This document shows, one piece after another, positions 14,170 through 17,981 of a stretch of 63,629 nucleotides of DNA. Position 1 is the first letter of the stretch, and every line of letters starts with the position of its first letter. The stretch comes from Clostridia bacterium. GTDB lineage: Bacteria > Bacillota > Clostridia > Oscillospirales > CAG-272. The stretch spans positions 1 through 63,629 of the forward strand of contig JAFTRA010000039.1 of the NCBI GenBank assembly GCA_017462485.1, given 5' to 3'. The translations under genes and the position numbers were made by a program. Under the pieces are notes generated by a model. That model had not been told where the DNA came from. It saw only the letters and a program-made list of their open reading frames with translations, and made no database searches.

Positions 14170-14204
14170 AATAAAAACACCTTTCATTGATATTAGAATT
14201 ACCG

Positions 14205-14247
14205 TATGGTACAGCTCTATGGTATCAAAAAAAGGTGTCTTTTTCAA
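14205..14247 (-). promoter_or_regulatory. promoter with AraC-type direct-repeat operator
   Basis: Minus strand: TTGAAA (14242-14247), 17-nt spacer, TACCAT (14219-14224). TACCATA is repeated in direct order at 14218-14224 and 14205-14211 with a 13-nt period, the first copy covering the -10 box. The neighbouring AraC-family gene is the likely binding protein. Confidence 0.45.
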
Positions 14248-14279
14248 TATTTGATTTTTACCTTGAATGTAGGTATTTT

Positions 14280-15122
14280 TTACTTTTTGAATTTCGCGCG
14301 GTATTCCGCAGGTGTCATACCGTTCTTTTTTGAGAATGCGTGGTAAAACGTGCTCCTGTCGGAAAAGCCCGACCTCTGTATTATTTGCTCTATCGAGGTA
14401 TCCTCGTTTTCAAGCAGCGCCATCGCGCGCTCTATTCTTCTGTTCTTTATATACTCCGTAGGAGACGAGCCGAATTTATGCTTAAAAACGCGGCTGAAAT
14501 ACGACGGATTGTAAAAGCACTTCGATGCCAGCGCGGTTAGAGTCATATGCTCCTCCGGGCTATTATCTATGTATTCCTTAAGTCCCTCCCATATATCATC
14601 CGCTAGGACGTCTGCCGCATCGGCGCGCCTGAGCATTTTTATGAGTAAGATATTAAGGTAATTTTCCACAACGGAGAGCGTTCCGCGCTCCTTGTCTTTG
14701 CGCTCCTTAAGCATAGCCTCAAGGATAAATTCGATTTCTCTGCGATCTTCTCCGCTAAAAGATATTTTTCCACCGTTCTGATCCTTTCTCATATCGTCAA
14801 ACGACGAAAGGGCGAGAAGGGCAAGTGCGTTTGCAGGAGTAATTACCCCCTCGTAAACAAGGTTTGGCGAGAAAAATATCTCGATATGAGAAAAGGGGGT
14901 ATCCGACGTAAACGAATGCGTAGCTCCGCAGTTTATAAATATCATATCTCCGCGCTTTACCTTATATTCAACTCCGTCAATAACCTCAAGAGCCTCTCCA
15001 TCGGATATATACACTATCTCGATAAATTCATGGCAGTGGAGAGGACAGCTTTGCGCGTTATTATAGCGTCGAAGTCCTATAGCGCCGCTGTCTATGCAAT
15101 TTTCCGACGTAAATACCTTCAT
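14280..15122 (-). CDS. AraC family transcriptional regulator
   Basis: A 280-residue regulator from the ATG at 15122, which has GAGAGGAGA just upstream; an earlier in-frame start at 15158 is less likely. The N-terminal ~130 residues are cupin-like (QSCPLHCHEFIEIVYI and FINCGATHSF). The C-terminal ~100 residues carry two helix-turn-helix motifs (LTALASKCFYNPSYFSRVFK and IEQIIQRSGFSDRSTFYHAF). It precedes the ADP-ribosylglycohydrolase gene by 110 bp and probably controls it in response to a small sugar-like ligand. Its own leader contains a copy of the interspersed repeat. Confidence 0.88.
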   Translation of the reverse strand: MKVFTSENCIDSGAIGLRRYNNAQSCPLHCHEFIEIVYISDGEALEVIDGVEYKVKRGDMIFINCGATHSFTSDTPFSHIEIFFSPNLVYEGVITPANALALLALSSFDDMRKDQNGGKISFSGEDRREIEFILEAMLKERKDKERGTLSVVENYLNILLIKMLRRADAADVLADDIWEGLKEYIDNSPEEHMTLTALASKCFYNPSYFSRVFKHKFGSSPTEYIKNRRIERAMALLENEDTSIEQIIQRSGFSDRSTFYHAFSKKNGMTPAEYRAKFKK

Positions 15123-15971: not shown

Positions 15972-16379
15972 ATGAACATGTACACAAGTGCTAAACCTTA
16001 TTTCTACGGCACAGGCAGAAGAAAAAAGTCTGTTGCAAGAGTTCGTCTCTATCCCGGTACAGGTAACGTTACCATTAACGGCAGAGATATTGATAACTAC
16101 TTTGGTCTTGAGACTCTCAAGCTCATCGTTAACCAGCCCTTCGGTGTAACCGAAACCGTTGGCAAGTTTGACATCGTTGCTAACGTTTGCGGCGGCGGCT
16201 TCTCCGGTCAGGCAGGCGCTATCCGTCACGGCGTTGCTCGTGCTCTCCTTGTTGCTGACGAAGCATACAAGCCCCTTCTCAAGAAGGCTGGCCTTCTCAC
16301 TCGTGACCCTCGTATGAAGGAAAGAAAGAAGTACGGTCTCAAGGCTGCTCGTCGCGCACCTCAGTTCTCGAAGAGATAA
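15972..16379 (+). CDS. rpsI: 30S ribosomal protein S9 (uS9)
   Basis: A 135-residue ribosomal protein whose C-terminal tail, ending in SKR, reaches the P-site tRNA. Motifs are [29 protein letters not shown] and [14 protein letters not shown]. Length is normal. The in-frame ATG at 15978 is an alternative start. The operon ends at the terminator at 16403-16425. The mobile-element remnant begins just after it. Confidence 0.98.
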
Positions 16380-16402
16380 TTTATTATTTCTTATATACAA
16401 AG

Positions 16403-16425
16403 AGCTCTGCTATGCAGGGCTTTTT
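16403..16425 (+). terminator. terminator of rplM-rpsI
   Basis: 8-bp stem AGCTCTGC (16403-16410) with GCAGGGCT (16414-16421), one G-U pair and a 3-nt loop, followed by a T run. Confidence 0.75.
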
Positions 16426-16431
16426 GTTATT

Positions 16432-16542
16432 TTCAAACACCTCGGTCATTGCAATACTGAAATCACCTCTAATATCTACGTTCACATCTTCAAAGAATAC
16501 AAAGCCAAGATGGCTGAATCTATCGAACACGATTTGCTTTAA
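16432..16542 (+). pseudogene. C-terminal remnant of a tyrosine recombinase (integrase)
   Basis: The frame ending at TAA 16540-16542 reads HLGHCNTEITSNIYVHIFK and then about 15 more residues. LGH...T..IY.H is the last catalytic block of phage and ICE integrases, with the tyrosine nucleophile in NIYVH. Everything upstream of this block is missing, so only about 35 codons remain. It sits directly after the rpsI terminator and marks the scar of an integrated element whose other remains extend to about 18 kb. Confidence 0.75.
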
Positions 16543-16664
16543 TCAAAAAGGGCGATACAAATTGTAAAAATTTATGCCGTTATATTTGCTTTTATTAGGA
16601 ATTATGATATGATAATAAATTAGGAAAAATTTCTCGATTATTGTCAACATTGTTGGAATAACAC

Positions 16665-16693
16665 TTGACAAACATCTAAAGATGTGGTATAAT
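16665..16693 (+). promoter_or_regulatory. consensus sigma-A promoter of the structured RNA and toxin
   Basis: TTGACA (16665-16670), 17-nt spacer, TATAAT (16688-16693). A perfect consensus. Transcription should start near 16700. Confidence 0.8.
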
Positions 16694-16699
16694 TTACTC

Positions 16700-16855
16700 G
16701 GTATCAATATATGATTTGGTCATATGATATTAGTGTAAGTGATTGGTTCACTTATTTTTAGACCGACAAGGTCGATATCACCAGTTAAGTTAGACCGACA
16801 AGGTCGCCCAAGTGCAAAACTTGGTCAGGGTCATAGAGATATCTATGACCTTTTT
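16700..16855 (+). ncRNA. structured RNA with tandem repeats, ended by a terminator
   Basis: A predicted RNA of about 155 nt between a perfect promoter and a strong terminator. It can form successive hairpins. Two have TTGG-containing loops: 16708-16726 with loop TTTGG, and 16736-16754 with loop TTGGT. Two copies of TTAGACCGACAAGGTCG (16758-16774 and 16790-16806, period 32 nt) each fold as GACC-GACAA-GGTC. A 6-bp hairpin at 16808-16824 and the terminator stem follow. GGTCATA at 16718-16724 could pair instead with TATGACC of the terminator. There is no good ORF inside. It is either an RNA antitoxin-like element or an attenuator for the toxin gene 16 nt further on. I know of no matching family. 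Confidence 0.55.
16829..16855 (+). terminator. intrinsic terminator between the structured RNA and the MazF-like gene
   Basis: Perfect 9-bp stem GGTCATAGA (16829-16837) with TCTATGACC (16842-16850), a 4-nt loop, then TTTTT. It lies only 17 nt before the toxin start codon, so toxin mRNA must come from read-through. Confidence 0.85.
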
Positions 16856-16871
16856 CTTTGGGAGAAATGTT

Positions 16872-17531
16872 ATGGAAAAATACGTAAAATCTATTACTGC
16901 GTTGAATAATGCTACACTCAATAATAAAGATGCTGATGACATAGAGCGGTGTGCAGAATCGGATATTTTTTGGGCACAAAACAAAAACAAACCTTTACTT
17001 GAGCGTAAAATAAAAAGAGGTAACATATATCAGTTTGAATTTGGTAAAAACTATGTGCCCGAAATGTCATATGAACACAGGGGGCTTGTTATAGGTGTTT
17101 CGGGTAAATTGTTGTATGTTCTTCCTATATGTTCTTATAATTCGTCTAAAGAAGAACATACCTCTGCATATCATCCTATAGATAACCCAGATAATACTAA
17201 AAGTAATTATTACCTACTAAAACAAAGCGAACATCCGTTTTTAACTCATAATTCAGTACTAAAGCTCAACGATATTAGAACGGTGAGTATCGCAAGAATT
17301 AAATACAAACAAAACAATGGGTATTTAAATCCACAGTCCAATACATATAAAGAAATTGAAAAAATAGTTTTTTCTAAATATTTTTATAAATATTCATATG
17401 ATTATAACCAACTTATAGAAGAAAACAAGAAACTGAATGAAGTGATAACCAAACTAAAAGATCTTAACTCGGAACTACAAGAGAAAGTTAATTCACTTAG
17501 GAGTACTTGTACAGCAAAGACAAGTGGATGA
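16872..17531 (+). CDS. PemK/MazF-like toxin with coiled-coil tail
   Basis: A 219-residue protein from the ATG at 16872, with GGGAGA 6 nt upstream. Residues ~45-150 look like the MazF/PemK endoribonuclease fold: IKRGNIYQFEFG is the typical RGdIy start, RGLVIGVSGKLLYVLPI the next strands, and LNDIRTVSIARI the final helix or strand. An N-terminal ~40-residue helical extension and a C-terminal ~40-residue coiled coil are extra. MazF-type toxins cut single-stranded RNA. No protein antitoxin gene is next to it. Instead the structured RNA and terminator precede it. The gene is clearly more AT-rich than the chromosome around it, which fits transfer. Confidence 0.65.
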   Translation: MEKYVKSITALNNATLNNKDADDIERCAESDIFWAQNKNKPLLERKIKRGNIYQFEFGKNYVPEMSYEHRGLVIGVSGKLLYVLPICSYNSSKEEHTSAYHPIDNPDNTKSNYYLLKQSEHPFLTHNSVLKLNDIRTVSIARIKYKQNNGYLNPQSNTYKEIEKIVFSKYFYKYSYDYNQLIEENKKLNEVITKLKDLNSELQEKVNSLRSTCTAKTSG

Positions 17532-17558
17532 TTTATTAAAATATTAGCGGTGAATGAT

Positions 17559-17598
17559 GGTGCAATTTTGGTGCAACACTTTACGCAACGATATTCAC
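17559..17598 (+). repeat. 40-bp direct repeat, copy 1
   Basis: Matches 35 of 40 positions of the copy at 17783-17822. Both contain a doubled GGTGCAA and then CACTTTA and AACGATA. It lies just after the toxin gene and is a candidate attachment-site or arm-site repeat of the lost element. Confidence 0.6.
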
Positions 17599-17725
17599 AA
17601 AACCCTACGATATTGCACAAAAACACATGATAACGCTATGATATGGCACAATATTTACGATATTTAACGCTGTTCACGCTATGCCTATAACAGCAAGAGA
17701 TAATTTTTGTCTTACGGAAACTCTC

Positions 17726-17766: not shown

Positions 17767-17782
17767 GTATATAGGTCGGCTT

Positions 17783-17822
17783 GGTGCAAATTTGGTGCAA
17801 CACTTTATCAAACGATACTCAC
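17783..17822 (+). repeat. 40-bp direct repeat, copy 2
   Basis: Second copy of the GGTGCAA-doublet repeat, 224 bp after copy 1 and on the same strand. Confidence 0.6.
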
Positions 17823-17981
17823 GATATTCACGATATCAAACGGCGTTCTTAACTTTTGACGGAGGAAAAATCATAACGCTTGCGAAGCAAGCTAATAACT
17901 CTAAACTAAAACATTCACATCTCGGGAGATTACAAAGCCAAGTGCCTCTAACAATCGATCACGATAGATAACCCAAAATAC

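What the first reader, a model, noticed from the sequence alone, without database searches (positions are those of the whole stretch)
16665..17531. Promoter - structured repeat RNA - terminator - MazF-like toxin: a possible new RNA-controlled toxin module
Seen: a perfect promoter (16665-16693), a ~155-nt RNA with two copies of TTAGACCGACAAGGTCG (period 32) and several hairpins, a strong terminator (16829-16855), and 17 nt later a MazF/PemK-like gene with no promoter of its own and no protein antitoxin gene. Known: this is the layout of type III toxin-antitoxin loci (ToxIN, CptIN, TenpIN), where a repeat RNA binds a toxin with a MazF/Kid-like fold. Inferred: this may be a type III-like system built on a PemK/MazF-type protein. 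Alternatively, the RNA is an attenuator, since GGTCATA (16718-16724) can pair with the terminator arm.
Basis: partly seen in the sequence, partly recalled or inferred. Interest (0 to 1): 0.78.

Follow-up and report, generated by a model that had tools for sequence, protein, structure and literature searches.

The report
RNA-guarded MazF-like toxin gene cassette
A gut-type bacterium carries a small mobile cassette in which a conserved folded RNA sits in front of a MazF-like, probably toxic gene and probably keeps it in check; a viral genome carries a copy of the RNA without the gene, which hints at an RNA used by a phage to disarm a bacterial defence.

Summary
In detail: perfect promoter, about 155-nt structured RNA, terminator, then a 219-codon gene. 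48 homologous genes were found; 47 of 48 genomes hold exactly one copy of the same RNA, upstream of the gene (the 48th contig starts inside the gene). The RNA matches no Rfam family and covaries strongly. No neighbour gene is conserved, so no protein antitoxin was found. In an RNA-first sample of 299 genomes, 15 carry the RNA but only 8 an intact gene; the RNA stays folded where the gene is broken or gone. A 101-kb viral contig carries the RNA alone. The protein is a divergent PemK/MazF relative. Best reading: an RNA-antitoxin/toxin module that works like type III systems, most like AbiF/RCd22, with a new RNA family and toxin; it lacks tandem repeat units, and similarity to ToxN was not seen, though that comparison has little power. 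The attenuator idea is not supported across the family. Toxicity, RNA binding and expression are untested.

The parts
16371..16382 (.). left 12-bp direct repeat AAGAGATAATTT at the 3' end of rpsI (att-like)
   Evidence: exact repeat with 17695-17706; same-genus genome G018 has the site without the roughly 1.3-kb insert
16665..16693 (+). promoter TTGACA-17-TATAAT with TG before the -10
   Evidence: the best -10-like box upstream of the RNA is an exact TATAAT in 35 of 43 loci examined
16700..16857 (+). structured RNA (proposed antitoxin RNA), about 155 nt; start inferred from the promoter
   Evidence: covariance model R1, 85.5 bits for 16723-16860 (the window is one of the model's 46 rows); fold z -4.84
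16700..16779 (+). 5' domain: outer helix GGUAUC/GAUAUC closing hairpins P0, P2 and P3 (predicted in the window; a related junction is predicted in the Lachnospiraceae type)
   Evidence: the Lachnospiraceae-type P1 and P2 are conserved but show no two-sided changes
16761..16773 (+). hairpin P3: GACC-GACAA-GGTC, GACRA pentaloop
   Evidence: 4 of 5 pairs with two-sided changes, 96.1% of cells paired
16793..16805 (+). hairpin P4: GACC-GACAA-GGTC, GACRA pentaloop, spacing 32
   Evidence: 3 of 4 pairs with two-sided changes, 100% of cells paired
16808..16824 (+). hairpin P5
   Evidence: 5 of 5 pairs with two-sided changes, 96.5% of cells paired
16827..16857 (+). intrinsic terminator between the RNA and the gene
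   Evidence: 5 of 10 pairs with two-sided changes, 98.5% of cells paired
16860..16864 (+). ribosome-binding-like GGGAG
   Evidence: sequence; a loosely defined RBS-like stretch in 36 of 37 relatives counted
16872..17531 (+). proposed toxin: 219 aa, N-terminal basic region, divergent PemK/MazF-like domain (about residues 49-161), C-terminal coiled coil
   Evidence: dN/dS 0.05-0.20 in 22 homolog pairs
17695..17706 (.). right 12-bp direct repeat AAGAGATAATTT

Best explanation
A self-contained RNA/protein toxin-antitoxin module carried on a small integrated cassette. From one strong promoter the cell makes mostly a short terminated RNA of about 155 nt (inferred) and, by read-through, a little mRNA for a MazF-fold toxin that in relatives mostly starts from TTG (27 of 37). 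The RNA is proposed to bind the toxin through its two GACRA-pentaloop hairpins, a loop type that in phage P22 boxB is read by a protein, and to hold it inactive; the terminator sets the ratio of RNA to toxin. Release of the toxin, for instance when a phage disturbs the host's RNA supply, would stop growth. Shown here: conserved linked RNA and gene, covarying structure, no conserved protein partner, RNA present where the gene is broken or gone, an insertion site in one genus, a free copy in a viral contig. Inferred: expression, toxicity, binding, neutralisation, phage defence.
For: 47 of 48 homolog genomes have exactly one RNA, upstream of the gene. 17 of 24 pairs have two-sided changes; 0 of 500 shuffles reach this. 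RNA and protein distances correlate, r 0.79, 0.62 and 0.52 in nested subsets of 34, 31 and 28 loci, 0 of 2000 permutations each. No ORF family shared by more than 4 of 49 loci in the flanks. RNA-first sample: 15 of 299 genomes have the RNA, of which 8 have an intact gene, 1 a gene in pieces and 6 no profile match. RNA pairs kept: 23.53 of 24 with intact genes (n=38), 23.64 with broken (n=11), 22.50 with genes missing, deleted or in pieces (n=8). A viral contig carries the RNA with its own promoter-like boxes and terminator and no toxin match in its 101 kb. PemK_toxin matches 20 of 36 relatives (best E 0.0014, below cut-off); distant relative L113 (E 2.1e-14 to the family profile) passes the PemK_toxin cut-off. 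Working analogue with the same layout: AbiF/RCd22 (PMC12373285).
Against: No expression, toxicity or binding data. No toxin family is matched above its cut-off by the window protein or by nine of the ten relatives listed in full (the tenth is distant L113). Where MazF has ITS and the distant relatives have PITS/PMTS, this family has F or C in place of the Thr in 35 of 35 rows, so the catalytic Thr of MazF (its role is recalled) seems to be replaced. Retention of RNA after gene loss could be inertia. Some broken genes may be assembly errors in MAGs. One orphan, L101, has a damaged P3. Three distant relatives of the protein lack the RNA. The viral copy is one case among 173 pattern-matched viral loci tested with the model. 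hhalign to PemK gave 2%.
Confidence: 0.6

Rival explanations
1. A purely cis-acting leader: the protein binds its own leader (two hairpins) and so adjusts termination or translation of its own mRNA; the RNA is not an antitoxin and the protein need not be toxic.
For: Strict cis linkage in 47 of 48 genomes, RNA/protein co-divergence, a terminator directly before the gene.
Against: No conserved alternative fold with the terminator: best upstream pairing with the terminator 3' arm scores 11.01 against 10.97 in shuffles, with the 5' arm 11.74 against 11.12, over 38 loci; single loci do score high (3' arm: L004, L005, L018, L045, L047; 5' arm: L016, L020, L051). The RNA remains folded without the gene and exists alone in a bacterium (L054) and in a viral contig (L235).
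Confidence: 0.25
2. Autoregulated non-toxic RNA-binding protein of a mobile element; gene decay is ordinary loss of accessory genes.
For: Broken or missing genes are common (12 of 48; 7 of 15); the Thr of MazF's ITS is F or C in 35 of 35 rows; no known-toxin match above cut-off in the window protein.
Against: Strong purifying selection on intact copies (dN/dS 0.05-0.20, 22 pairs); MazF-family relationship; among close homologs no intact gene without the RNA was seen.
Confidence: 0.12
3. A classical attenuator or riboswitch sensing a metabolite, with the first reader's GGTCATA pairing as antiterminator.
For: In the window the best upstream pairing with the terminator 3' arm scores 17 against a shuffled mean of 13.4, with 3 of 40 shuffles as high; L004 (0 of 40) and L005 (1 of 40) score high too.
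Against: Not conserved over 38 loci; no Rfam match at gathering score in the window or in its RNA searched alone at E up to 10; the downstream gene is a MazF relative, not a metabolic gene.
Confidence: 0.03

Closest known systems
AbiF/RCd22 (abiF RNA motif RF03085; PMC12373285, abstract, outline and passages seen)
   Same: SigA-type promoter, short RNA with two conserved hairpin motifs (33 and 35 nt, 19 nt between), terminator, then a toxin gene without predicted promoter; RNA acts in cis and trans and binds the toxin
   Different: Toxin is AbiF/Abi_2 (linked to Cas13 ancestors), not PemK/MazF; the RNA here matches no Rfam family at gathering score
Type III toxin-antitoxin systems ToxIN, CptIN, TenpIN (PMC5086642, PMC4627078, PMC6315513; passages seen)
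   Same: Promoter, RNA, Rho-independent terminator, toxin gene; ToxN and CptN folds resemble Kid; found in many gut Firmicutes
   Different: Those RNAs are tandem arrays of roughly 34-55-nt units, pseudoknotted in the solved cases and cut by the toxin; here only a 13-nt hairpin recurs (core identity 0.75, following 18 nt 0.27), and no similarity to ToxN was seen (weak test)
MazEF/PemIK type II
   Same: PemK/MazF-like domain
   Different: No conserved protein antitoxin gene; N-terminal extension, C-terminal coiled coil, F or C in place of the Thr of ITS
Phage P22 boxB RNA (PMC12550061, passages seen)
   Same: GACAA pentaloop with a GNRA-like fold read by a protein
   Different: Two hairpins in a leader with its own terminator; no N protein; resemblance is of the loop sequence only
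Pseudo-ToxI of phage TE escape mutants (PMC5086642, passage seen)
   Same: Phage-borne copy of an antitoxin-like RNA
   Different: Here it is a complete free-standing RNA in an environmental viral contig (L235); effect untested

Membership tests
Type III TA (ToxIN/CptIN/TenpIN) | RNA encoded upstream of the toxin on the same strand behind one promoter | tested here: met
   (sequence only; transcription not measured)
Type III TA (ToxIN/CptIN/TenpIN) | Rho-independent terminator between RNA and toxin gene | tested here: met
   terminator helix 98.5% of cells paired
Type III TA (ToxIN/CptIN/TenpIN) | tandem array of repeat units (roughly 34-55 nt) | tested here: not met
   only the hairpin recurs: core 0.75 identity, following 18 nt 0.27, in 36 loci
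Type III TA (ToxIN/CptIN/TenpIN) | repeat folds as H-type pseudoknot | tested here: inconclusive
   plain hairpins with covariation; pseudoknots were looked for only by eye
Type III TA (ToxIN/CptIN/TenpIN) | toxin homologous to ToxN, CptN or TenpN | tested here: inconclusive
   no type III toxin model for the window protein or for ten relatives (Pfam); the lists for 36 relatives show only 25 of 115 and 25 of 55 families. hhalign to a 10-sequence ToxN profile 0.3%, but the control MazF against ToxN gives 0.1%, so the test has no power. CptN and TenpN not compared directly; no fold prediction
Type III TA (ToxIN/CptIN/TenpIN) | RNA neutralises the toxin protein directly and is processed by it | not testable with these tools
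   needs bench work
PemK/MazF superfamily | PemK_toxin (PF02452) profile match | tested here: inconclusive
   20 of 36 relatives match at E up to 1, best 0.0014, below cut-off, about residues 49-161; distant relative L113 passes cut-off at 27.1 bits; window protein itself: no match; hhalign 2%
MazEF/PemIK type II TA | adjacent protein antitoxin gene | tested here: not met
   no ORF family (45 codons or more) shared by more than 4 of 49 loci within the flanks held, up to 4 kb a side; ORFs overlapping the gene or the 200 nt before it were left out
Known structured RNA family (Rfam 15) | match at gathering score | tested here: not met
   window, window RNA at E up to 10 and eight relatives: no match to the RNA at gathering score

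The most novel reading that the evidence does not exclude
A new class of RNA-guarded defence toxin (MazF-fold protein held by an RNA with paired GACRA pentaloop hairpins) against which at least one large phage carries its own free-standing copy of the antitoxin RNA, a natural RNA-only counter-defence.
Probability: 0.35. Interest if true: 0.87.

Novelty: new variant of a known kind. Interest (0 to 1): 0.72.

Why it matters
It would add an RNA-antitoxin family based on PemK/MazF-type proteins, which are best known with protein antitoxins, and a structured RNA that is not in Rfam 15. It makes testable how a MazF-fold protein can move from protein to RNA control. If the phage copy works, it would be a natural stand-alone RNA anti-defence, a complete gene rather than a laboratory escape mutation.

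Tried and rejected
Family searches of the window protein gave nothing above a cut-off; PADLOC LmuC (E 0.08) was discarded as chance, and coiled-coil matches (DivIC, bZIP and the like) reflect the C-terminal heptads. The lists show 25 of 115 and 25 of 55 families, so they do not show absence of others. hhalign to a PemK profile of 14 close sequences gave a 29-column local match, probability 2%, to ToxN 0.3%; PemK against ToxN, a control, gave 0.1%, so these comparisons decide nothing. R1 matches of 26-39 bits were judged terminator-only or partial, by alignment (L055-L058; L189, L224) or by the printed sequence (L165, L166), and were not counted. Weak protein matches not counted as close homologs: G012 (E 9.3e-4, residues 137-214) and G572/L061 (E 7.9e-5; a shorter PemK-like ORF by eye); L002, L113, L061 and L003 carry no R1 match. 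Protein searches of viral contigs, plasmids and phages found no relative, nor did one DNA search of plasmids. The antiterminator idea was tested and not supported for the family. P1 and P2 of the Lachnospiraceae type have no two-sided changes and are held only as predictions.

Limits: the genome search samples are partial (391 of the class, 299 of the family of G584, and 70 and 69 of two narrower groups). Viral pattern scans gave 0, 39, 13, 102, 13 and 11 stretches; 173 distinct loci were run through the model (52, 78 in 109, 12 new in 115, 10 in 117, 21 in 123). One search listed 80 of its 102; the 21 (L317-L337) are taken from the gap in numbering to be its unlisted ones. One real match. Rows dropped before counts: A1 leaves out L025 and L033 (near copies) and L050 (no leader on contig); A3 leaves out broken genes, L009 and L033 (near copies) and distant L002; one search uses 43 loci, 38, 22 (fold) and 36 (copy identity), 29 sequences. 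Gene states 'intact' and 'broken' were judged by eye; the single stops of G603 and G613 were taken as the natural ends because L032 and L042 show full-length frames. In one search the 37 rows include frameshifted L006, and the start coordinate of L032 was set 3 bases early (it is TTG).

Print: searches listed no paper that, by title or abstract start, describes this RNA or a PemK/MazF toxin with an RNA antitoxin; only open-licence PMC papers are held, and the 3161 candidate RNAs of PMC8040213 (passages seen) were not checked one by one, so the RNA could be among them.

Full report
What is there. In window 16665-17531 a perfect promoter with TG before the -10 starts an RNA of about 155 nt that folds far better than shuffled sequence (z -4.84, 0 of 200), ends in an intrinsic terminator, and is followed after about 16 nt by a 219-codon gene with a GGGAG box. 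Two identical 17-mers lie 32 nt apart; each contains a hairpin GACC-GACAA-GGTC.

It is a conserved unit. A genome scan found 48 homologs at 44-75% identity, by record title mostly Lachnospiraceae with some Oscillospiraceae and other Clostridia-type MAGs. Their upstream regions show the same RNA. On 46 leaders, 97.8% of cells of the 24 pairs are standard pairs, 17 pairs have two-sided changes, and no shuffle (0 of 500) reaches this; sliding the partners drops pairing to 31-47%. Each carrier genome has exactly one copy: 47 of 48, the last being a contig that starts inside the gene; in L028 it lies 385 nt before the start codon, in the other 32 loci measured 67-122 nt, counted from P4. Core parts are hairpins P3 and P4 with GACRA loops (variants GATGA, GGCRA), P5 and the terminator; an outer 5' domain varies between clades, and L036 has lost P3. 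RNA and protein distances go together (Mantel r 0.79; 0.62 and 0.52 after removing divergent clades; 0 of 2000 each).

No protein partner found. All-against-all comparison of ORFs of 45 codons or more in the flanks of 49 loci shows no family shared by more than 4 loci. So the RNA and the gene alone travel together. In the window the unit sits on a segment of about 1.32 kb at the 3' end of rpsI between two 12-bp direct repeats (16371-16382, 17695-17706); genome G018 of the same genus has this site without the segment, and two other genomes of the genus (G011, G016) have further copies of the rpsI end there, as at an integration hot spot. Of 69 genomes of the genus only the window's has the RNA (two 31-32-bit matches not counted).

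The protein. It has an N-terminal basic stretch, a domain at about residues 49-161 and a coiled coil. 20 of 36 relatives match PemK_toxin weakly (best E 0.0014); the window protein does not. A distant relative, L113, matches the family profile at 2.1e-14 and passes the PemK_toxin cut-off. L002 and L113 lie beside phage-type genes (my reading of the ORFs); they and a third distant relative, L061, lack the RNA. No similarity to ToxN was seen, but the control, MazF against ToxN, is blank as well, so a distant fold relation is open. The Thr of MazF's ITS is F or C in 35 of 35 rows, so catalysis of the usual MazF kind is in doubt; the role of that Thr is recalled. Intact copies are under purifying selection (dN/dS 0.05-0.20 in 22 pairs with dS below 1.2).

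The gene is lost, the RNA stays. Of the 48 homologs 12 are broken by stops, frameshifts or truncation (judged by eye; some may be assembly errors). A sample chosen by RNA alone is clearer: 15 of 299 genomes have the RNA, of which 8 carry an intact gene, 1 a gene in pieces and 6 none by profile; in L092 and L093 stubs of the gene remain. The RNA keeps 23.53 of 24 pairs beside intact genes (n=38), 23.64 beside broken ones (n=11) and 22.50 where the gene is missing, deleted or in pieces (n=8; the worst, L101, keeps 20). The reverse, an intact close homolog without the RNA, was not seen. This fits an antitoxin, whose loss before the toxin would be harmful, but inertia after recent loss cannot be excluded.

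Free RNA. L054 (bacterial, G206) has promoter and RNA, both loops changed to GGCAA, a lengthened terminator and no toxin gene after it; G206 is not among the three genomes with a protein match in the class search. L235, a 101,075-bp IMG/VR contig, has the RNA at 14193-14330 (63.8 bits): TTGACA-17-TATCTT, P3 GATT-GGCAA-AATC with changed but kept pairs, P4, P5 and terminator, fold z -3.93, and no toxin match in the record. Its P4-P5 stretch is nearly the same as in the window-type copies (no tree was built). It is the only real match among 173 viral loci tested. Three of five neighbouring proteins match PHROG families; I saw no structural phage gene in the two stretches read, and the viral label is IMG/VR's.

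How it most likely works. A short RNA in excess, and a little toxin by read-through, is the logic of type III systems (PMC5086642 and PMC4627078, passages) and was shown for AbiF/RCd22, where two conserved hairpins neutralise the toxin in cis and trans and the terminator limits read-through (PMC12373285, abstract, outline and passages). The GACRA loop recalls P22 boxB, whose GACAA pentaloop takes a GNRA-like fold and exposes a C to the protein (PMC12550061, passages). A basic stretch before the MazF-like domain would be a natural partner, which is conjecture. The attenuator alternative has no pairing conserved over 38 loci, though the window, L004 and L005 score above most of their own shuffles.

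Membership. It works like a type III system but is not filed as one: tandem repeat units were tested and not met, and homology to the known toxins is undecided. That RNA-antitoxin systems reach beyond ToxN-like toxins is shown by AbiF and by avcID with a deaminase toxin (PMC10511110, start of abstract in the listing only). I call it a new variant of a known kind.

Noticed in passing
L235:14193-14330: Free-standing copy of the RNA in a 101-kb viral contig with large-phage type genes and no toxin match in the record.
   Followed up: partly
L036:3838-4561: Its leader lacks hairpin P3: a TTGATT-17-TATAAT promoter lies directly before P4, and its protein also lacks most of the C-terminal coiled coil.
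   Followed up: no
L189:9476-9495 and L224:8164-8183: Two viral contigs share TTTGACCGACAAGGTCACCC beside a long palindrome (26 bits); unclear whether a partial mimic or chance.
   Followed up: partly
window 16371-17706; L169:1880-2600; L170:1930-2381: The 3' end of rpsI looks like an insertion hot spot in this genus, with repeated copies of the gene's last bases.
   Followed up: partly
window 17559-17590 and 17782-17830: Repeated GGTGCAA...ACTTTA-type stretches downstream of the cassette, perhaps remains of an integrase end.
   Followed up: no
L002:1327-2019; L113:1477-2265; L061:1378-1941: Distant relatives of the protein without the RNA, the first two beside phage-type genes; how they are controlled is unknown.
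   Followed up: partly
L006:3599-3651 (-) and L006:4711-4852: An ldcC-type RNA (RF02440) and a cobalamin riboswitch flank one broken homolog.
   Followed up: no
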